DNA of 62,919 nt. Origin: Roseivirga sp. (GTDB taxonomy: Bacteria > Bacteroidota > Bacteroidia > Cytophagales > Cyclobacteriaceae). Position numbers and translations under genes: made by a program. Within the stretch, counting starts at the first letter, position 1; every line of letters starts with the position of its first letter. The notes under the pieces are model-generated. The model did no database searches, had not been told where the DNA came from, and was given only the letters and a program-made list of their open reading frames with translations. Shown in pieces: positions 1-6,952 of this stretch. The stretch spans positions 1 through 62,919 of the forward strand of contig JAJCYM010000092.1 in NCBI GenBank assembly GCA_029262895.1, read 5' to 3'.

Positions 1-552
1 AGGGCTAACCGTGACACCCGTGGCCGGCACGCTCACGTTGGCGGTACCTCCGGTAATTGCTCCAGATTGAGCAGCCATCGTTGCTCCATTTTCTGTAGTG
101 CTGTAGGGCGTAATTGCATTCTTTCCTACTGAAGGTGCATCAGCCAAATAATGACCACTTGGTGAAGATTGATCTCCTGTACCACTATTGACCTTTTGGG
201 TGGTATCAACAGATCCACCGGTCAAAGTAGCCGTTCCTGTAGATCCCTGTGTCACAGCTGAATGAGTATGACTCGGGATTTGCAATTGATTTAGGTAAAC
301 AATTTCAGTACCCGAACGCTGGCCTAGTGGGCGCGGAGACAATCCCGGACCAGTACCCTGACTAATCGGCACACGGCCCCTCAGATCAGGCAATGCAAAA
401 GTAGTACGGCCATCACCACCGTAAGTGGTACCGAGAATTGAAAACAAAGCCGTATTCTGCGCTATAGACAATAACTGCCCATTGCAATAGGCCCAAGCCC
501 TGGGGGCAAAATTTCCGCCAAAGCCGCGGATTTCTCCTATAGTTCCTTCCAT
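1..552 (-). CDS. Tail-collar domain fibre protein (MdpB-like), 3' part missing
   Basis: The start codon is at 552 and the frame stays open for 184 codons to the window edge, so the C-terminus is missing. The N-terminus (MEGTIGEIRGFGGNFAPRAW, then AYCNGQLL) and the following YGGDGRTTFALPDLRGRVP are the conserved blocks of the phage tail collar fold found in microcystin-dependent proteins. A histidine-rich IPSHTHS motif lies near residue 95, followed by a Gly/Thr/Ser/Ala-rich region typical of a fibre shaft. There is no signal peptide. No other phage structural gene is visible, so this is an orphan fibre-type gene rather than part of a visible prophage. It is the last visible gene on the minus strand after a formyltransferase, a binding-protein-fold protein and a hydroxylase. 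Family recognition is firm; its role and how it leaves the cell are unknown. Confidence 0.88.
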   Translation of the reverse strand, partial: MEGTIGEIRGFGGNFAPRAWAYCNGQLLSIAQNTALFSILGTTYGGDGRTTFALPDLRGRVPISQGTGPGLSPRPLGQRSGTEIVYLNQLQIPSHTHSAVTQGSTGTATLTGGSVDTTQKVNSGTGDQSSPSGHYLADAPSVGKNAITPYSTTENGATMAAQSGAITGGTANVSVPATGVTVSP

Positions 553-882
553 AATTTCTTAAGTGTATGTGGTTAAATAAAAATTCGTTTAGTTAAAACT
601 TGAGCGGTTAATATAAAGATTTTCAGTTTTAATTAAACATACATACCATAATTTTTTATTTAAGATATTATATGAATGGATGTTCTAGGATAAGGACGTT
701 TGATTAAATGTGTTGAATGACAATAATCGGCAAACTCATTATTATTTAATCAGCGAAACGTATTTCAGGGTTTTCCCCGATATAGATCAGTACTATTTGA
801 TCACACCCTTTTAAGAAGTTACTTTCCAAAGTAGGTCTAATCATAATGTAAGAATTTTTTCTTAGGCCTCTGTCAAATTGAC
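553..882. other. 330-bp intergenic region, no gene seen
   Basis: This AT-rich stretch lies between the stop of the formyltransferase gene (883) and the start of the tail-collar gene (552), both on the minus strand. No credible reading frame was found. It has a short perfect inverted repeat (TAAGAA/TTCTTA, 849-864) just after the formyltransferase stop, with no T-run, and I saw no exact TAnnTTTG promoter match. Its length suggests the fibre gene has its own promoter. Confidence 0.5.
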
Positions 883-1806
883 TTAGTCGAATCGGTGACC
901 GACTACAAAACCAAGGTTAAATAGTTTGACCCCGGAAACATAACCTTCTCTTGTTCTTGCTACGGTGATTCGAACATATTCATCATCAGAGCAAGCCACA
1001 ACCAATCCATAGACGGAATCGGCATGCACAATTTGACCCGGTTCAGCCTCAACAGGGTTGTCCAGGTTTACGGGAGTAATTTCAAGAATTGACATGTCGA
1101 CATCATTGTTCCGGGTTCTGGCACCCTGGTATTTTGGGTTGGTCGCGTTGATCAATGCTTCAATCTCTTCTGAGGTTTGCCTTTGCCAATCAATGGTAAG
1201 ATCATCATTTGATGGTTTTTGATTAATCACCTCATCTGAAGGCTCAAGTTTCACGTATTCGAAATTTTCATCATTTTGAATTTGGACAACCTTTTCAACA
1301 AGATCGGGAACGGCATTTCCAAGTCGCATACAGTGAAATCCATAGTTCTCTCCAGGGAATATTGAAACTAACTCCTGATGTAAAACCGGTCCTTCGTCAA
1401 TATTCTCATTCATCAAATGGATGGTGAATCCTCCATCCCTTTCACGGTTCTTGAATTGCCAAAAAATCGGATCTATACCTTTGTACTTTGGCAAAATTCC
1501 AAAATGAAAATTGACAAAACCATAAGGTGGAATTTTTAGAAGTGAGGCGGGAACCTTCCATGGAAAGGTAAGCACCCAAACGGTGTCGGTTTTAGTTTCT
1601 AATATCTTATCGGCAAGCACCTTTTCCCAGCTCTTTCTTTCTAATGTGACAATATCAACTCCAAGATCCATATCCTCCAGCATTGGTGCCAAGAATGTCT
1701 CGTTCTTCTTAACTATGCCTATAGCGGTAAGAAAACCTAACTCCTTGAGCTTTGAAATTGTAGGGAAAGCCAGGGAATCGGAATTACATAAAACCAGAAT
1801 TTTCAT
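883..1806 (-). CDS. Formyltransferase of the Fmt/ArnA type, substrate unknown
   Basis: The 307-residue protein has the formyl-THF-dependent transferase fold. The catalytic triad is visible: Asn99 and His101 in VNFHFGILPKYKG and Asp137 in NENIDEGPVL. A C-terminal domain from about residue 205 to the end (DWQRQTSEEIEALINATNP onward) resembles the FMT C-terminal OB-like domain, so the whole family architecture is present. By family it should move a formyl group from 10-formyl-tetrahydrofolate to an amine. The context (fibre protein, hydroxylases and an arginine-methyltransferase-like protein, no translation genes) argues against the housekeeping Met-tRNA formyltransferase; an amino sugar or a protein/peptide amine is more likely. 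It lies 44 bp downstream of the binding-protein-like gene on the same strand. Fold is well supported; substrate is inference. Confidence 0.82.
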   Translation of the reverse strand: MKILVLCNSDSLAFPTISKLKELGFLTAIGIVKKNETFLAPMLEDMDLGVDIVTLERKSWEKVLADKILETKTDTVWVLTFPWKVPASLLKIPPYGFVNFHFGILPKYKGIDPIFWQFKNRERDGGFTIHLMNENIDEGPVLHQELVSIFPGENYGFHCMRLGNAVPDLVEKVVQIQNDENFEYVKLEPSDEVINQKPSNDDLTIDWQRQTSEEIEALINATNPKYQGARTRNNDVDMSILEITPVNLDNPVEAEPGQIVHADSVYGLVVACSDDEYVRITVARTREGYVSGVKLFNLGFVVGHRFD

Positions 1807-1850
1807 TGCATTAATTTTTTAATGACATAAGACATTCTATTTAACTGCGA

Positions 1851-2954
1851 TCAAACACCAAGATATGGATTCACCCAATTGGAGGTCATTGCGTCTCGAA
1901 GAGCATTCAAATCTTTATCTCCGTCCAAGTCGACCGTTTTCTGTAAGAGAATAGTAAAGTCATGTTTATTGTCTTTTCCAAAAGTGTTTTTCAAAACGCT
2001 TATGTCGCCCAGAAGTTTAGCCGAGAAAGTAGATTGATAGAGCTTAGTGTTATCCAGTTTTCTTAAGGCATCGTTTAATCCACTCGCTCCTATCTCTCCA
2101 TTGTTCGCCAGGATAGTTTCACCTATAGCAGTACCGGCAGAAGCTCCCAAATTTCCAAACACATCAGTGTATAGTATATCACTTTTAACATTAGACTGGT
2201 CTACAGTAGTATATACCGATAAACCTGATAAGTCCTGTTTACCAGAATCCAATAAAAAAGGCAATGCACATAATGCCACCTTCTTATCGAGGTTCCGTGA
2301 TTTGAACTCATTGATAAACAAGTCCGCCTCTTCACCAGAAAAGAGTGCAAAAACGAAGTCTTTACTTTCGAGATTCACTTGATCAAAAGCTTCTTGAACA
2401 GGAGACAGACCACCATCCGGAGGCATCGGAATTAAACTTACTTCGCAATTTGTCTCATTCTCAGCATCCCTCACCCCCACCTGGAATGCCTGCATAAAGG
2501 CATAGCCAATATCGTAAGTGGCAGAAAAGATAAGACCATTCTTACCAAGGTGGCTTGCCGCGAAATAACCTAGCAGCCAAGATTGTTGCCATAAATGAGG
2601 TGAGTTTAAGAAAACATGATCGTTGTAACCTGCGGATGGGAAAAAATGTTCTCCAACATTGCTACAGAGGAAAGGAACTTCCCTCTTCTCAAACCTTTCC
2701 AGAGAGTGTTGCATGCCTTCGCACGACACTATGCCAGTAACGATATCTACATCATGATAACCAAAGAATCTGTCAAGAGCATCGTTGATTGGCTTTATGC
2801 TCCCATCGTTGATTAGCTCAACTATGATTTCGGGTTCATATTCGGAACCGTCCAAGGTTTGGTTTATGGCTTTTTCAAAAGCTCTCTTATACTCTTTTCC
2901 CATGGGACGAATCCCTGATGTTGGCAGCATCATTCCGATGGAAATACTCCTCAT
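1851..2954 (-). CDS. Periplasmic-binding-protein-fold protein without signal peptide
   Basis: The 367-residue protein looks like the Leu/Ile/Val-type (Peripla_BP_6) ligand-binding family. It opens with IGMMLPTSGIRPMGKEYKRA, the typical first strand and loop of amide or branched-chain amino acid binding proteins, and continues with a two-lobed alpha/beta pattern (DIVTGIVSCEGMQ, FSATYDIGY). Unlike transport binding proteins it begins directly with the mature fold, with no signal peptide or lipobox, and no ABC permease or ATPase gene is nearby. It is therefore probably cytoplasmic, perhaps a sensor like AmiC or a substrate carrier for the neighbouring enzymes. It sits 73 bp after the hydroxylase gene and 44 bp before the formyltransferase gene. 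Its ligand is unknown. Confidence 0.7.
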   Translation of the reverse strand: MRSISIGMMLPTSGIRPMGKEYKRAFEKAINQTLDGSEYEPEIIVELINDGSIKPINDALDRFFGYHDVDIVTGIVSCEGMQHSLERFEKREVPFLCSNVGEHFFPSAGYNDHVFLNSPHLWQQSWLLGYFAASHLGKNGLIFSATYDIGYAFMQAFQVGVRDAENETNCEVSLIPMPPDGGLSPVQEAFDQVNLESKDFVFALFSGEEADLFINEFKSRNLDKKVALCALPFLLDSGKQDLSGLSVYTTVDQSNVKSDILYTDVFGNLGASAGTAIGETILANNGEIGASGLNDALRKLDNTKLYQSTFSAKLLGDISVLKNTFGKDNKHDFTILLQKTVDLDGDKDLNALRDAMTSNWVNPYLGV

Positions 2955-3027
2955 TGCGTATTTTTATTCATTGAAATTCGGGTTGACATCCTCCTCTTTT
3001 AATCCAAAAAAAGCTATCCTTTTTCAA

Positions 3028-3717
3028 TTAAAGTTCAGCCCACATTCTAATCAGATTACTATGTGCTTGCTGTAATATAGTCTTGTTCTCATTGGACTTA
3101 GCATCATTCTGTGAATTGATCACATGACTCATTTGTCTGAGAATCCCCCGTTTTTGACTATCTCGTATGGCAGATTGCATCCAGGTCACTACAGCAACTC
3201 TTGTTCCTTTTGTCACCTCCAATACTTGGTGTAATCTAGTTGTAGGGTAGATTACAGCATCTCCCGCATTTAACTTGAACTTATGCTCTCCGATTTCCGT
3301 CATTACCAACAATTCTCCTCCTTCATAGGTGTCTGGTTCGGATAGAAAAAGCGTCATCCCAACGTCAGTCCGAATTGTAAACTGACTCCCCATCAATGGA
3401 CTATCAACATGCATTCCATAATTCATTCCGACCTCATACTTACTTATCAAGGGTGGCAAGACGGCCTTCGGTAAGATAGCTGATTGGATTTCCGGATTAT
3501 GAGAAATTGCCATCATAACAATATTCTGAATTTGCTGTGCCTCAATACTCTCTTCGGCTCTCATCTGGAGGTTCTTTTTTGCTTGTCTCGCATTATCAGT
3601 AGCAGAAGCTCCTCCGTCTTGAAATTTTGCCCGGTTTGCCAATTGAAGAATGGTCGCCAGCCCCTTCTCTGAAAGTAATTGTTTGACTATCAAATAGTCT
3701 GGATAAAAATTCTCCAT
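3028..3717 (-). CDS. Fe(II)/2-oxoglutarate dioxygenase, PKHD/P4H type
   Basis: The 229-residue protein has the full facial triad of this superfamily: His103 and Asp105 in GMHVDSP, His163 in TRLHQVLEV, and Arg173 (KGTRVAV), which would bind 2-oxoglutarate. YEGGELLV and LNAGDAVIYP are the usual double-stranded beta-helix motifs of PKHD/prolyl-4-hydroxylase-like enzymes such as PiuC. Length matches the family (about 225). It is first in the minus-strand group that runs towards the fibre gene, 209 bp from and divergent to the TPR-methyltransferase gene. PiuC-type genes usually sit beside iron-uptake receptors; none is seen here, so a protein or peptide hydroxylation role fits the context better. 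Enzyme class is firm, substrate unknown. Confidence 0.85.
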   Translation of the reverse strand: MENFYPDYLIVKQLLSEKGLATILQLANRAKFQDGGASATDNARQAKKNLQMRAEESIEAQQIQNIVMMAISHNPEIQSAILPKAVLPPLISKYEVGMNYGMHVDSPLMGSQFTIRTDVGMTLFLSEPDTYEGGELLVMTEIGEHKFKLNAGDAVIYPTTRLHQVLEVTKGTRVAVVTWMQSAIRDSQKRGILRQMSHVINSQNDAKSNENKTILQQAHSNLIRMWAEL

Positions 3718-3926
3718 TTGGTTAGTAAATCATTTTGAAACTCCGATGACCTGAATTAATCATCCGGCACTATAAAGTCAAAACTTTAACTTAATTATAC
3801 CATAATTTAATAGCAACTATCCATATTTAAATCGATTTTTTTTACAAATTGTAAAAAAGCGTTGAAACCTCTCAATCACGTTGTTTGTAATTCAAGTTCT
3901 TACTAAAGGAAACCCCGGTTAAGTCA

Positions 3927-5696
3927 ATGGCATCTGAATCCAATTTTCAAAAAGCGTTAAAATTTCATCAGAATGGCGATTTGATGAACGCCCAGATATT
4001 CTATCAAAAAGCTATCGAACTTTCAGATAGCAGTTCCAATGCCTATAATAATCTGGGGCTTATCCATTTCGCCCAGGGCAATTTGCCCGAGGCGATGAAA
4101 TTGTGGAAATCGGCCACAGACTCAAATTCCAATTTTGTAGATCCGTTGGTCAATCTTGGGATTGCACATTCACAAAGTCAAGATTTTAAGAATTCCATAC
4201 ATTATCTGGAGAAAGCAACTCTAATAGTTCCAGGCCGCTCAGACATCAAGTTTATGTTGGCTCAGGCCTATAGTCAAACAGGCAACCCAGACAAGGCCAA
4301 AAAATTTCTAACTCCGATTTTAAAAGGTAACTCTCCAGATCCTAATGCTTTTTTGCTTTCTGCTCAAATCGATGCGACCGAAGGGGATTTTGCAGCTGCT
4401 GAAAAGACCCTAAAAGAGTTGTTAAAGCTTTCACCCGGAATCCCTGAGGCAATTATCAATCTAGGTCACCTGAACAAAGACCAGGGTAATTTTTCAAATG
4501 CAAAAACCTACTTTCTCAAAGCCCAGAAGGAAAATTCAAATCACTTTTTGGCCAATGCTGAACTGGGCAGGTTTCTGGATGAAAGTGGAGAAACGGAATC
4601 GGGTATAGGTTACCTGGAAAAAGCTTTAAAGCTAAAGCCTAACGATTGGTCGGTCCTTGTACATCTGGGAAATGCCAAACAGCGTCTGGGCCTTTTTGAA
4701 GAAGCAATCGAGGCATTTCGAATGGCGCTGAAAGTTAATCCCGATGATTTAGGGACACGTCAAAACCTTAGCCGGGTACTCACAAGATTTGTCCCTCCCT
4801 GGCATTTGAGTATGCTTGCCGATCATGTCCGTAATGATCGATTTGAAAAAGCCATACAACATAGAGTACATACAGATAGCATTGTGCTGGACATTGGGGC
4901 GGGATCTGGCATTCTTTCTATGATGGCTGCCCGACACGGGGCCAAACAAGTCTATGCCTGTGAGACGTCCGCACATATTGCCAAAGTGGCTCAAGAAATT
5001 ATCGCAAAAAATGGATTTGATAAGAAGATTAAATTATTTCAGAAGAAATCGACCCAAATTAAACCTGAGGAAATAGTCGAAAAGCCCAATCTTGTAGTGG
5101 CTGAAATATTCGATGCCGGTCTACTTGGAGAAATGGCGATACCAACATTTCGCCACGCTCAAAAGGAATTAGTGGACAAAAATTGTCGAATTATTCCGTC
5201 CAAGGCAGATGTAATCGGAAAACTTCTTTCTGCAGAAAGAAGCGCATCTGTAAATCCTATGAAAGAAATTTCGGGTTTTGACTTATCCCCTTTCGACCAA
5301 TTCAGAGTTGCAAAAGAATATGTTTCTGAAAACCTTAATAAGATCAGTCACGAGTTTCTCTCTGATGAATTTCCAATGTTGAAATATGACTTTGAGAATT
5401 TAGGTGAGCCAGTAGGTGAACACGAATCTCGACAAGAAGAAATTGAGGTGGATATTACTTCCGATGGTGTGCTTAACGGTGTTGCTTTTTGGTTCAATCT
5501 CCATTTAACTGAGGACATTAGCCTCAGCAGCTCACCTGAAAGACTCGATAATCATTGGGGGCAAGCGTTGTTCTTTTTTGAAAATTCAATGCAAGTAATC
5601 AAAGGGGATAAAGTAAAGCTATCCATTTGCCATAACGATGTAAAAATATGGTTCGATGAGCCAATCCTAAAAAAACGACAAACTACAAAGCGATGA
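3927..5696 (+). CDS. TPR protein fused to a PRMT7/PRMT9-like methyltransferase
   Basis: The 589-residue protein has two parts. Residues 1 to about 285 are tetratricopeptide repeats (NAYNNLGLIHFAQGNLPEA and further copies). From about 288 a protein arginine methyltransferase core follows: FVPPWHLSMLADHVRND, the SAM-binding LDIGAGSGILSMMAARHGA at 321-339, acidic Glu346 in QVYACE, a double-E loop with Glu393 and Glu402 (AEIFDAGLLGE), and NHWGQALFFFE near 542 where PRMTs carry the THW-loop equivalent. A C-terminal beta-barrel region completes the fold. The layout and motif wording recall eukaryotic PRMT9/PRMT7. The expected reaction is SAM-dependent methylation of protein arginine, with the TPRs binding substrate. 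Its stop overlaps the next gene's start, so it is coupled to the oxygenase at 5693. Confidence 0.85.
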   Translation: MASESNFQKALKFHQNGDLMNAQIFYQKAIELSDSSSNAYNNLGLIHFAQGNLPEAMKLWKSATDSNSNFVDPLVNLGIAHSQSQDFKNSIHYLEKATLIVPGRSDIKFMLAQAYSQTGNPDKAKKFLTPILKGNSPDPNAFLLSAQIDATEGDFAAAEKTLKELLKLSPGIPEAIINLGHLNKDQGNFSNAKTYFLKAQKENSNHFLANAELGRFLDESGETESGIGYLEKALKLKPNDWSVLVHLGNAKQRLGLFEEAIEAFRMALKVNPDDLGTRQNLSRVLTRFVPPWHLSMLADHVRNDRFEKAIQHRVHTDSIVLDIGAGSGILSMMAARHGAKQVYACETSAHIAKVAQEIIAKNGFDKKIKLFQKKSTQIKPEEIVEKPNLVVAEIFDAGLLGEMAIPTFRHAQKELVDKNCRIIPSKADVIGKLLSAERSASVNPMKEISGFDLSPFDQFRVAKEYVSENLNKISHEFLSDEFPMLKYDFENLGEPVGEHESRQEEIEVDITSDGVLNGVAFWFNLHLTEDISLSSSPERLDNHWGQALFFFENSMQVIKGDKVKLSICHNDVKIWFDEPILKKRQTTKR

Positions 5697-6283
5697 AAAC
5701 AAAACTACCTTTTGGTCCCCCGAAATTGACGCAATTTATGGATGCCTGTTGGTTTGAAAGTTATTTTTCAAAGGAAGAAGTTGCCCTTTTAAATGATCGC
5801 TGGGATGAGGAAAACAAGCAAACTGCTGAAGTTGCAGAAGACGGACAACATGTACCTACCTTACGCCAATCATCCGTTACTTTTGTTGAACCGGGAGAGG
5901 AGGATTTTCAGTGGTTCATGCATAGGCTTTCGGAAATAGCCATTAATGTCAACCATCAGAGATACAACTTCGACTTGCTTGGTTTCTATGAGCCTATACA
6001 AATCGCTGAATATACGGAAGGTGACTTTTTTGATTGGCATATGGATTTCACCAATGAATCTGCCTCAAATCGCAAATTGAGTATTAGTATTCAGTTATCT
6101 GAACCTAGCGCCTATGAAGGTGGGGACTTGGAGTTTATGGTAAATACTAAACACATTTGTGCTCCAAAAACACCGGGGACTGTTATTGTTTTTCCTTCTT
6201 TTATTCAGCATAGAGTGACTCCAATTACCAAGGGGTCCAGAAGGTCTGTAGTTGGATGGGTAAATGGGGCTCCATTTAAATAA
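5693..6283 (+). CDS. Fe(II)/2-oxoglutarate oxygenase, tandem copy 1
   Basis: The 196-residue protein carries His116 and Asp118 (DFFDWHMDF), His173 (FIQHRVTP) and Arg183 (KGSRRSVVGWV), the metal and co-substrate ligands of 2-oxoglutarate oxygenases. YEGGDLEF and GTVIVFPSF complete the beta-helix signature. The start codon overlaps the end of the TPR-methyltransferase gene by four bases, implying translational coupling and perhaps a shared substrate. It is a paralogue of the next gene, with identical length and ligand positions. It probably hydroxylates a protein or peptide side chain, but nothing in the sequence fixes the substrate. Confidence 0.85.
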   Translation: MKTKLPFGPPKLTQFMDACWFESYFSKEEVALLNDRWDEENKQTAEVAEDGQHVPTLRQSSVTFVEPGEEDFQWFMHRLSEIAINVNHQRYNFDLLGFYEPIQIAEYTEGDFFDWHMDFTNESASNRKLSISIQLSEPSAYEGGDLEFMVNTKHICAPKTPGTVIVFPSFIQHRVTPITKGSRRSVVGWVNGAPFK

Positions 6284-6361
6284 CGCTTTAACACAATAGC
6301 ACGAACCACAACACAATTCACTTAGAAAGCCAGAAATAATCGAAGCCCCCATAACACTACA

Positions 6362-6952
6362 ATGAAGGAACTTTTGCCATTCAGACCACCCGAGCTTCAG
6401 AATTATCTGGATGCCTGCTGGGTGGAAGGTTATTTCAACGAAGATGAAGTAACCCAAATATCGAATATGTATGATGCCGGAGATAAAAAGGGAGCAGAGG
6501 TAACTGGCAATGAAGCTTTAGAACCTGATTTCAGGAAATCGACAGTGGCCTTTGTTGAACCAGGGGAGGAAGAATTCCAAAACATCATGCTCAAGTTGGC
6601 TCAATTAACCACACAAATCAATCAGCAGCGCTATCATTTTGATTTGATGGGGTTCTATGAGTCCATACAGATAGCTGAGTATGGTAAGGGTGACTTTTTT
6701 GATTGGCATGCCGATTTTGGCAATGGTTCAACTTCCAATAGGAAGCTAAGCCTAAGTGTGCAATTAAGTGATCCGGAGGAATACAAAGGAGGAAATCTGC
6801 AGTTTATGGCACACAAAAAGGGAGTCGATGCTCCGCGTACTAAAGGAACCGTGATAATCTTTCCTTCCTTTGTATTACATCAAGTGACTCCTATTATTTC
6901 AGGTAAAAGGCGATCTATGGTCGGCTGGGTCTCAGGTGTGCCATTTAGATAA
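6362..6952 (+). CDS. Fe(II)/2-oxoglutarate oxygenase, tandem copy 2
   Basis: This 196-residue protein is collinear with the preceding one. His116, Asp118, His173 and Arg183 fall at the same residue numbers, and DFFDWHADF, YKGGNLQF and GTVIIFPSF match the same motifs. The shared opening (LPF-PP, then LDACW) and ending (GWV-G-PF) show a tandem duplication, while divergence in the region before the first histidine (about 30-65) suggests the two copies have specialised. A 78-bp spacer separates it from copy 1 and it is the last plus-strand gene of the cluster. By family it would use Fe(II), oxygen and 2-oxoglutarate to hydroxylate a substrate that is not known. Confidence 0.85.
   Translation: MKELLPFRPPELQNYLDACWVEGYFNEDEVTQISNMYDAGDKKGAEVTGNEALEPDFRKSTVAFVEPGEEEFQNIMLKLAQLTTQINQQRYHFDLMGFYESIQIAEYGKGDFFDWHADFGNGSTSNRKLSLSVQLSDPEEYKGGNLQFMAHKKGVDAPRTKGTVIIFPSFVLHQVTPIISGKRRSMVGWVSGVPFR

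What the first reader, a model, noticed from the sequence alone, without database searches (positions are those of the whole stretch)
1..6952. Candidate modification system around a tail-collar fibre gene
Seven adjacent genes in two divergent groups: a tail-collar fibre protein, a formyltransferase with intact triad, a signal-less binding-protein-fold protein, three Fe(II)/2-oxoglutarate oxygenases and a TPR-arginine-methyltransferase fusion. Three kinds of small-group chemistry (formylation, hydroxylation, methylation) around one surface-fibre gene suggest a dedicated machinery that decorates the fibre or a peptide. No other phage gene and no natural-product synthetase is visible. I know of no described system with this set, but I cannot search.
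Basis: partly seen in the sequence, partly recalled or inferred. Interest (0 to 1): 0.78.

Follow-up and report, generated by a model that had tools for sequence, protein, structure and literature searches.

The report
Phage-tip-like proteins with modification enzymes
Many bacteria carry short proteins built like the tip of a phage tail fibre, next to a dedicated acyl-transferring enzyme, sometimes a binding protein, and often a giant surface protein; the genes in this window belong to that little-studied set and add hydroxylating and methylating enzymes to it.

Summary
The seven genes are real. The window is a whole contig that ends inside the collar gene. The grouping is not chance: in 395 sampled genomes of the phylum (the window's own included), 20 of 21 formyltransferase-clade hits, 24 of 24 binding-protein hits and 9 of 9 strong hits of an alternative GNAT acetyltransferase lie within 1.4 kb of a collar gene. 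A like layout (1-3 short collar genes, an N-acyltransferase, sometimes the binding protein, often a giant Ig-type protein) recurs in Proteobacteria, Deinococcota and Bacillota with GNAT in the formyltransferase's place. In near relatives a second collar and a giant protein follow where this contig stops. The hydroxylases and the PRMT9-like TPR-methyltransferase are lineage-specific extras. Best reading: a non-phage, fibre-tip-like surface module whose proteins are modified by small groups; the modification is inferred. Capping of the collar N-terminus fits GNAT loci (cleavable start in 73 of 82 collars, against 17 of 191 in formyltransferase loci), but is not significant after tree correction on supported branches, has counterexamples, and formyltransferase loci do not differ from loci with neither enzyme. 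Ten searches of one open-access library found no description. Structure prediction was never available.

The parts
1..552 (-). Standalone phage tail-collar protein (PF07484), 3' end cut by the contig end
   Evidence: family profile matches T4 gp12; begins MEGTIGEI, contains HTH (HxH) and Cys23
883..1806 (-). Formyltransferase of a collar-linked clade (not the canonical Fmt)
   Evidence: the clade scores 149 bits or more, next hits 122.5 or less; 20 of 21 beside a collar gene
1851..2954 (-). Type-I periplasmic-binding-protein-fold protein without signal peptide
   Evidence: 24 of 24 family hits beside a collar gene
3028..3717 (-). PKHD-type (YbiX-like) Fe(II)/2-oxoglutarate hydroxylase
   Evidence: NF003974, 227 bits, cut-off 143; PKHD/OXY cluster in 15 of 78 related loci
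3718..3926 (.). Divergent intergenic region between the two gene groups (presumed shared promoter region)
   Evidence: coordinates; promoter not tested
3927..5696 (+). TPR repeats fused to a protein arginine methyltransferase domain, nearest solved relative PRMT9
5693..6283 (+). Fe(II)/2-oxoglutarate oxygenase (2OG-FeII_Oxy_3), overlaps the methyltransferase gene by 4 bases
6362..6952 (+). Second Fe(II)/2-oxoglutarate oxygenase, paralogue of the previous gene

Best explanation
This is a bacterial, non-phage module built on short proteins that resemble the receptor-binding tip of a phage short tail fibre. The module works at the cell surface, often together with a giant repeat protein (secreted by the type IX system in Bacteroidota), and its proteins are modified with small groups by enzymes encoded beside them. 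Core step (inferred): a dedicated N-acyltransferase, formyltransferase here and a RimI-like GNAT elsewhere, acylates an amine of a module protein, most likely the N-terminus of the lysine-poor collar protein. Extra steps in this lineage (inferred): hydroxylation by three 2OG oxygenases and arginine methylation by the TPR-PRMT9-like enzyme, on the collar proteins or on the giant protein. The binding protein would bind the ligand or hold the substrate. Shown: the genes, their intact catalytic residues, and tight genomic coupling of acyltransferase, binding protein and collar, with the acyltransferase-collar coupling seen in several phyla. Inferred: substrate, order of steps, surface location of the collar protein, and function (adhesion or recognition).
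For: Coupling: FMT clade 20 of 21, binding protein 24 of 24, strong GNAT hits 9 of 9 within 1.4 kb of a collar gene in 395 genomes (without the window's own genome 19 of 20, 23 of 23, 9 of 9; score limits set at gaps in the lists). In 78 loci found through the formyltransferase alone, a collar gene lies within 8 genes in 72 and at the next position in 51. Swap: in 81 mapped collar loci of the sample, FMT beside 20, GNAT beside 9, never both within 3.5 kb; GNAT lies beside the collars in 13 of 16 non-Bacteroidota plasmid loci (8 of those 13 were also seeds of the profile); 8 of 8 further GNAT hits that I opened also have collars beside them. A homologue of the binding protein sits between collars and GNAT in three Deinococcus plasmids. 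Giant neighbour. Enzyme variety near the formyltransferase: AspH-like, PhyH, APS kinase, carbamoyltransferase, a methyltransferase-like family, sulfotransferase in L096. Collar: HxH and Cys23 in 100% after rounding of 210, lysine 0.9% against 6.26% for 753 other ORFs of the loci; T4 gp12 match. N-terminus: GNAT-locus collars start with a residue allowing Met removal in 73 of 82, FMT-locus 17 of 191, neither 9 of 58. In Acaryochloris three collar genes and a putative acetyltransferase with neighbouring tags are listed together among lowered genes: PMC11633204 (passages seen).
Against: No modified product has been seen. The collar protein has no signal peptide by eye, so its surface location is an assumption. 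52 of 81 mapped collar loci have neither acyltransferase nearby, so acylation by these enzymes is not needed for every collar protein. N-terminus test: after tree correction only 7 supported independent pairs remain (same way 3.8, opposite 0.0 on average, median p 0.125), and FMT loci do not differ from loci with neither enzyme. Exceptions: one group of FMT loci starts MSTEPF or MSYEPF (L323, L327, L332, L347, L191, L192), and L308 has three MSEPF collars but neither acyltransferase. The giant gene is not universal: an ORF of 1000 aa or more (600 if cut) lies within 3 kb in 106 of 180 loci, and in 53 of 91 formyltransferase loci. It is unseen in the window's own genome. The search tool scored only the best few candidates per genome, so tallies may miss members.
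Confidence: 0.5

Rival explanations
1. The enzymes tailor a small molecule, peptide or glycan (natural product or surface sugar), and the collar and giant proteins bind or display it; formyl, hydroxyl, sulfate, carbamoyl and methyl groups are typical tailoring groups.
For: APS kinase (10 of 78 loci), NodU/TobZ-type carbamoyltransferase (10 of 78) and AspH-like enzymes (30 of 78) recur near the formyltransferase. Lasso-peptide-like genes (asparagine-synthase-like cyclase, B2, PqqD, HprK-related kinase, NTP_transf_5) lie in 7 to 9 of 119 collar loci by family, and such genes are annotated in two Azospirillum plasmids. The binding protein has a ligand-binding fold.
Against: In L028, L029 and L031 the stretch from the collars to the oxygenase holds no unassigned gene (a 235-aa AspH-like ORF follows in L029, seen), and lasso-like families were not found in the four Roseivirga loci L048-L051. 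The acyltransferase and the binding protein follow the collar gene, not the lasso-like genes. PRMT family members act on proteins (recalled).
Confidence: 0.25
2. The substrate is the giant surface protein rather than the collar proteins; the collar proteins are chaperone-like or tip subunits.
For: Giant proteins with signal-peptide-like starts (by eye) and type IX sorting domains (3 of 3 complete ones scanned) lie near collar genes; their repeats could carry Asp/Asn hydroxylation, and AspH-like genes are common nearby.
Against: The giant gene is present in 106 of 180 collar loci. A type IX substrate crosses the inner membrane unfolded (recalled), which limits cytoplasmic modification. Collars of GNAT loci differ from others at their N-terminus (with its limits).
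Confidence: 0.15
3. Remnant of a prophage or tailocin whose fibre gene was kept, with unrelated enzymes next to it by chance.
For: Collar domains are typical of phage fibres; 348 phage records match the collar protein of a close relative, all under 60% identity (the rows shown were 32-37%).
Against: No other phage gene recognised among the eight window proteins scanned, nor another phage structural gene named among the features of the 19 annotated plasmid stretches opened; the related chromosomal loci were not scanned for phage genes. Bacterial plasmid copies are closer over full length (about 50%). Linkage of 20 of 21, 24 of 24 and 9 of 9.
Confidence: 0.03
4. A sensing unit: the binding protein senses a ligand and the other proteins transmit or regulate, comparable to AmiC-type cytoplasmic binding proteins (recalled).
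For: The binding protein shows no signal peptide in the window and in most other Bacteroidota rows of alignment A2 by eye, although its fold is a ligand-binding one.
Against: The Deinococcus homologues begin with a twin-arginine-like signal (read by eye); I saw no regulator shared by the loci, though none was searched for specifically.
Confidence: 0.07

Closest known systems
Phage T4 short tail fibre gp12 (collar / receptor-binding tip)
   Same: Collar domain; the family profile matches 1ocy at 9.4e-7 and a long tail fibre (8kec) at 2e-9; HxH motif (metal-binding role in T4 fibres recalled)
   Different: Standalone protein of about 170-200 aa starting right at the collar domain, in 1-3 tandem bacterial copies; no other phage genes recognised in what was scanned
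Methionyl-tRNA formyltransferase Fmt and ArnA formyltransferase domain
   Same: Two-domain formyltransferase, N-H-D catalytic residues
   Different: Separate clade far below the Fmt and ArnA cut-offs, tied to collar genes; the window's genome has a second, separate formyltransferase match
RimI-type N-terminal acetyltransferases (GNAT)
   Same: One GNAT from the alternative slot (L202) matches the rimI model (39.8 bits, cut-off 86.4)
   Different: Own family, beside collar genes; substrate unknown
Protein arginine methyltransferase 9 (PRMT9)
   Same: Catalytic domain matches solved PRMT9 at 2.7e-47; TPR repeats in front of the domain (TPRs in PRMT9 recalled)
   Different: Bacterial, in the collar locus of 6 of 19 genomes of the genus; substrate unknown
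Dedicated modification enzymes encoded beside their surface-protein or toxin substrate (for example RTX-toxin acyltransferases, flagellin or adhesin glycosylation islands; recalled)
   Same: Enzyme genes adjacent to one structural gene
   Different: Small-group chemistry, phage-fibre-like structural gene, two unrelated acyltransferase families in the same slot

Membership tests
Phage short tail fibre / prophage | Collar domain fold | tested here: met
   PF07484 99.9 bits; gp12 match of the family profile
Phage short tail fibre / prophage | Other phage structural or replication genes nearby | tested here: not met
   None recognised among eight window proteins scanned, nor in the feature names of 19 annotated plasmid stretches; related chromosomal loci not scanned for phage genes
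Canonical methionyl-tRNA formyltransferase | Score over the Fmt equivalog cut-off | tested here: not met
   92.4 bits against 201.5
Formyltransferase superfamily | N-H-D catalytic residues | tested here: met
   Invariant in 14 of 14
Protein arginine methyltransferases | PRMT oligomerisation domain, double-E loop, HW motif | tested here: met
   PRMT_C 49.5 bits; motifs in 6 of 6 (motif names recalled); PRMT9 match
Protein arginine methyltransferases | Arginine methylation activity | not testable with these tools
   needs an assay
ABC transporter substrate-binding proteins | Exported by signal peptide and linked to transporter permease and ATPase genes | tested here: not met
   No signal peptide by eye; no permease or ATPase among the neighbouring window genes. 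The fold itself is met
Collar / N-acyltransferase / binding-protein module (defined here) | Collar gene beside an FMT-clade or GNAT gene | tested here: met
Collar / N-acyltransferase / binding-protein module (defined here) | Giant surface protein next to the collar genes | tested here: inconclusive
   Contig ends; present in near relatives L028, L030, L031; 106 of 180 loci overall
Lasso-peptide-like biosynthetic cluster | Cyclase, B2 protease, PqqD-type chaperone | tested here: not met
   None among the window proteins scanned and none found in L048-L051; one other Roseivirga locus, held twice as L045 and L054, has a B2-like hit only

The most novel reading that the evidence does not exclude
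A bacterial surface system that spans several phyla was overlooked because its central proteins are annotated as phage tail fibre: short fibre-tip proteins, often three in a row, which may form one trimer from three different chains, are capped at their N-terminus by a dedicated enzyme. The cap is acetyl on Ser/Ala/Thr in GNAT lineages and a restored formyl-methionine in Bacteroidota. They are displayed with a giant surface protein and further decorated by lineage-specific hydroxylases and methyltransferases, including a bacterial TPR-PRMT9.
Probability: 0.2. Interest if true: 0.9.

Novelty: new variant of a known kind. Interest (0 to 1): 0.68.

Why it matters
If true, many genes annotated as phage tail fibre are parts of a bacterial surface or recognition system with its own protein-modifying enzymes. 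Deliberate N-formylation of a mature bacterial protein by a dedicated enzyme, and a working bacterial PRMT9-like enzyme with a neighbouring substrate, would both be unusual. The swap between formyl- and acetyltransferase in the same gene position makes the reaction type directly testable.

Tried and rejected
Rejected: prophage remnant (no other phage gene recognised, strong linkage); Fmt duplicate working on tRNA as the simple reading (separate clade, tied to collar genes, though tRNA formylation is not excluded without an experiment); chance neighbourhood. Lysine formylation or acetylation of the collar protein looks unlikely because it is lysine-poor (median 1 to 2 per protein); however all charged residues are low, so this is weak.

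Led nowhere or ran against the reading: formyltransferase loci do not differ from loci with neither enzyme in collar N-terminus; the GNAT association is nearly always the same way or tied but underpowered after tree correction; L308 has the acetylation-type N-terminus without such an enzyme. The 351-of-395 tally is mostly other formyltransferases and says nothing. In the phylum sample around L096's genome, 4 of 148 genomes had a collar hit. Of eight genomes reached from formyltransferase loci, three (those of L079, L100, L114) have no collar of this profile, so the formyltransferase search also reaches relatives outside the module. Literature: ten searches of one open-access library found no description; of papers I saw only listings, plus passages of PMC11633204, PMC3174227 and PMC13288928. 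Structure prediction could not be run.

Limits and dropped rows: one search fetched 18 of the 22 relatives matched (L021-L024 matches left out). Searches scored only the best 4 to 9 candidates per genome. In one search, 2 of 80 loci (L105, L111) had no called FMT ORF. In one search ten redundant or off-target loci and the window were left out; its count of ORFs of 600 aa or more includes housekeeping genes, so I use. In one search, 81 of 85 listed collar loci were mapped (four not fetched; further matches were not listed by the tool), and collars whose start could not be placed were left out (29 in the none class of the census, 1 in the plasmid set). In one search identical sequences, collars under 100 bits and collars without a placed start were left out. 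Some loci were held twice under two ids (for example L045 and L054, L126 and L194), so the 119 and 180 loci are not all independent. ORFs were called by my own simple script (longest first), which mis-picks some ORFs in G+C-rich loci; for the plasmid loci all ORFs were kept instead. Eight plasmid loci (L229-L236) were fetched through the GNAT and one (L203) through the formyltransferase, so they are not independent for linkage. The background for giant ORFs (0 of 43 overlapping 8-kb stretches) comes from the window contig alone.
Full report
What is there. The window is one whole contig of a Roseivirga-like genome (102 contigs; contigs of its genus mates match named Roseivirga records in length). 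Its first 7 kb hold two divergent gene groups. Leftward: collar protein (cut by the contig end), formyltransferase, binding-protein-fold protein, PKHD-type hydroxylase. Rightward: TPR-arginine methyltransferase, then two paralogous Fe(II)/2-oxoglutarate oxygenases. Spacing inside each group is short (44 to 330 bases; the methyltransferase and the next gene overlap by 4), and the groups are separated by 209 bases, so two divergent transcription units are likely (inference). Catalytic residues are intact in the formyltransferase (14 of 14) and the methyltransferase (6 of 6); the iron-binding residues of the oxygenases were read by eye.

Is the grouping real? With the binding protein as query, 23 of 147 genomes had a match, the window's own included. 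I fetched loci of 18 of the 22 relatives, and all 18 have a collar gene within about 1.5 kb of the binding protein. The full set with formyltransferase, binding protein, PKHD, methyltransferase and one short oxygenase is kept in L028, L029 and L031; L030 lacks the short oxygenase. A scan of 84,980 species with the formyltransferase alignment alone kept the best 80 of 227 relatives; in 78 a formyltransferase ORF was called, and 72 of those have a collar gene within eight genes, 51 of them at the next position downstream. A sample of 395 genomes of the phylum gives the cleanest numbers. The formyltransferase clade is set apart by a score gap (149.8 bits and up, then 122.5 and down) and has 21 hits, 20 beside a collar gene; the exception is on a 6.5-kb contig. 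The binding protein has 24 hits, 24 beside a collar gene. Fourteen genomes have formyltransferase and binding protein next to each other. Collar genes of this profile occur in 82 of the 395 genomes, so chance is excluded.

The module outside Bacteroidota. Plasmid records with collar genes show the annotation 'tail fiber protein', often three in a row, followed directly or after one gene by a GNAT N-acetyltransferase: Aminobacter, Pontibrevibacter, Phyllobacterium, Azospirillum; in three Deinococcus plasmids the order is large protein, three collars, 'ABC transporter substrate-binding protein', GNAT. That Deinococcus protein matches the window's binding-protein profile (40, 49 and 130 bits in the three loci with GNAT, 26 bits in L200 without it) and shares its C-terminal SGW...L ending; it begins with a twin-arginine-like signal (read by eye). 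A GNAT query against all plasmids hit 45 records; eight that I opened have collars beside the GNAT, in Paenibacillus, Pseudoalteromonas, Ruegeria, Rhizobium, Comamonas, Azospirillum, Indioceanicola and Sinorhizobium. Six of these eight records are annotated; five of the six have an Ig-like, YDG-domain or choice-of-anchor giant protein next to the set, while the Azospirillum oryzae stretch shows lasso-like genes instead. In the Bacteroidota sample itself nine strong GNAT hits (125 bits or more; the next is 79.9) are all beside collar genes, and two genomes (G347, G482) carry one GNAT-type and one formyltransferase-type collar locus. Of 81 mapped collar loci in that sample, 20 have the formyltransferase, 9 the GNAT, none both, 52 neither. 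So two unrelated N-acyltransferases occupy the same slot, and many collar loci have neither.

The giant neighbour. In L028, L030 and L031 the collar genes are followed by an ORF of more than 1800 aa running off the stretch; the part read in L028 carries bacterial Ig-like and Calx-beta domains, as do those of L032 and L042. Three complete ones scanned elsewhere (L042, L053, L190) end in type IX sorting domains. Over 180 loci an ORF of at least 1000 aa (600 if cut off) lies within 3 kb of the collars in 106: formyltransferase loci 53 of 91, GNAT loci 21 of 29, binding protein without either enzyme 9 of 10, none of the three 23 of 50; none of 43 overlapping 8-kb stretches elsewhere in the window contig has one, a small control. 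The window's contig stops inside the first collar gene; repeats in a following giant gene would explain the assembly break (inference).

Extra enzymes. Within eight genes of the formyltransferase in 78 loci: an AspH-like cluster in 30 loci (54 copies), a methyltransferase-like family without a Pfam match in 19 (named from its sequence by eye), PKHD/oxygenase cluster in 15, PhyH in 14, APS kinase in 10, NodU/TobZ-type carbamoyltransferase in 10, TPR-PRMT in 4 (a cluster's name rests on one scanned representative). In 7 to 9 of 119 collar loci, by family, lasso-peptide-like genes occur as well. In the window's genus the TPR-PRMT scores 780 bits or more in 7 of 19 genomes, 6 times at the collar locus and once beside the Pfam-less methyltransferase-like family with no collar gene recognised within the 15 kb fetched. 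Its catalytic domain is nearest to PRMT9 among solved structures.

The collar protein. 210 distinct sequences share HxH and a cysteine at position 23 (100% after rounding), are lysine-poor (0.9%; 753 other ORFs of the loci 6.26%) and start directly at the fold. The profile matches phage T4 gp12 and another tail fibre. Second residue: named formyltransferase loci D/E in 131 of 146; sampled formyltransferase loci D/E in 33 of 46, with Ser in one group (12); sampled GNAT loci Ala/Ser in 21 of 24; plasmid GNAT loci Ser/Ala/Thr/Gly/Val in 52 of 58. Within Bacteroidota the locus-level difference (cleavable start in most collars: 9 of 9 GNAT loci against 6 of 20 formyltransferase loci) gives Fisher p 7e-4, but loci are related; on supported branches of a tree only 7 independent pairs remain, on average 3.8 the same way, 0.0 the other way and 3.2 tied, median p 0.125. 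Formyltransferase loci and loci with neither enzyme do not differ. So the idea that both enzymes cap the collar N-terminus, acetyl on Ser/Ala/Thr after Met removal or formyl on the retained Met, is a lead and not a result.

Mechanism, shown and inferred. Shown: genes, intact active sites, coupling within Bacteroidota and of collar with acyltransferase in other phyla, interchangeability of the two acyltransferases. From established family knowledge (recalled): formyl-tetrahydrofolate or acetyl-CoA as donors, 2-oxoglutarate and iron for the oxygenases, S-adenosylmethionine for the PRMT. Inferred: the acceptor is a module protein; collars are surface-exposed recognition tips working with the giant protein; hydroxylation and methylation are lineage-specific additions.

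Verdict. I rate it a new variant of a known kind (dedicated modifying enzymes beside a structural surface gene), with a bolder reading kept open in the novel case.

Noticed in passing
L198 1-19801; L096; L127; L086; L197; L199; L207; L234: Collar genes with formyltransferase or GNAT lie beside lasso-peptide-like genes (asparagine-synthase-like cyclase, B2, PqqD, HprK-related kinase, NTP_transf_5, sulfotransferase, ABC transporter, in varying subsets) in a minority of loci.
   Followed up: partly
L061 3020-4765, L060, L066, L067, L074: A NodU/TobZ-type carbamoyltransferase (scanned in L061; others by length and position or cluster) stands at the divergent position where Roseivirga has the TPR-PRMT.
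   Followed up: partly
L361 6325-8151 and 8288-9232: A second-site TPR-PRMT of the genus sits beside a methyltransferase-like protein of a family with no Pfam match (MT333), which itself recurs at collar loci.
   Followed up: partly
L046 9249-9965 and L047 5058-7358 (own genome, contigs C86 and C44): Two further collar-domain genes in the window's genome, one a lone short protein and one a 766-aa protein, with no formyltransferase or binding-protein homologue recognised in the stretches fetched.
   Followed up: partly
L186 193-4342: A collar/binding-protein locus with two short PhyH-like ORFs, a methyltransferase-like and an AspH-like gene on a short contig.
   Followed up: no
L053 7628-8632, L072 12484-13374, L189 6786-7778: A family of about 300 aa with weak metallophosphatase similarity and, in some members, a twin-arginine-like signal recurs near the collar genes (9 of 78 loci).
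   Followed up: no
A8 columns at the C-terminus of the binding protein: The binding protein ends in SGWxNPYL in most relatives, resembling the QPYLxxNY stretch near the collar protein's C-terminus; possibly chance.
   Followed up: no
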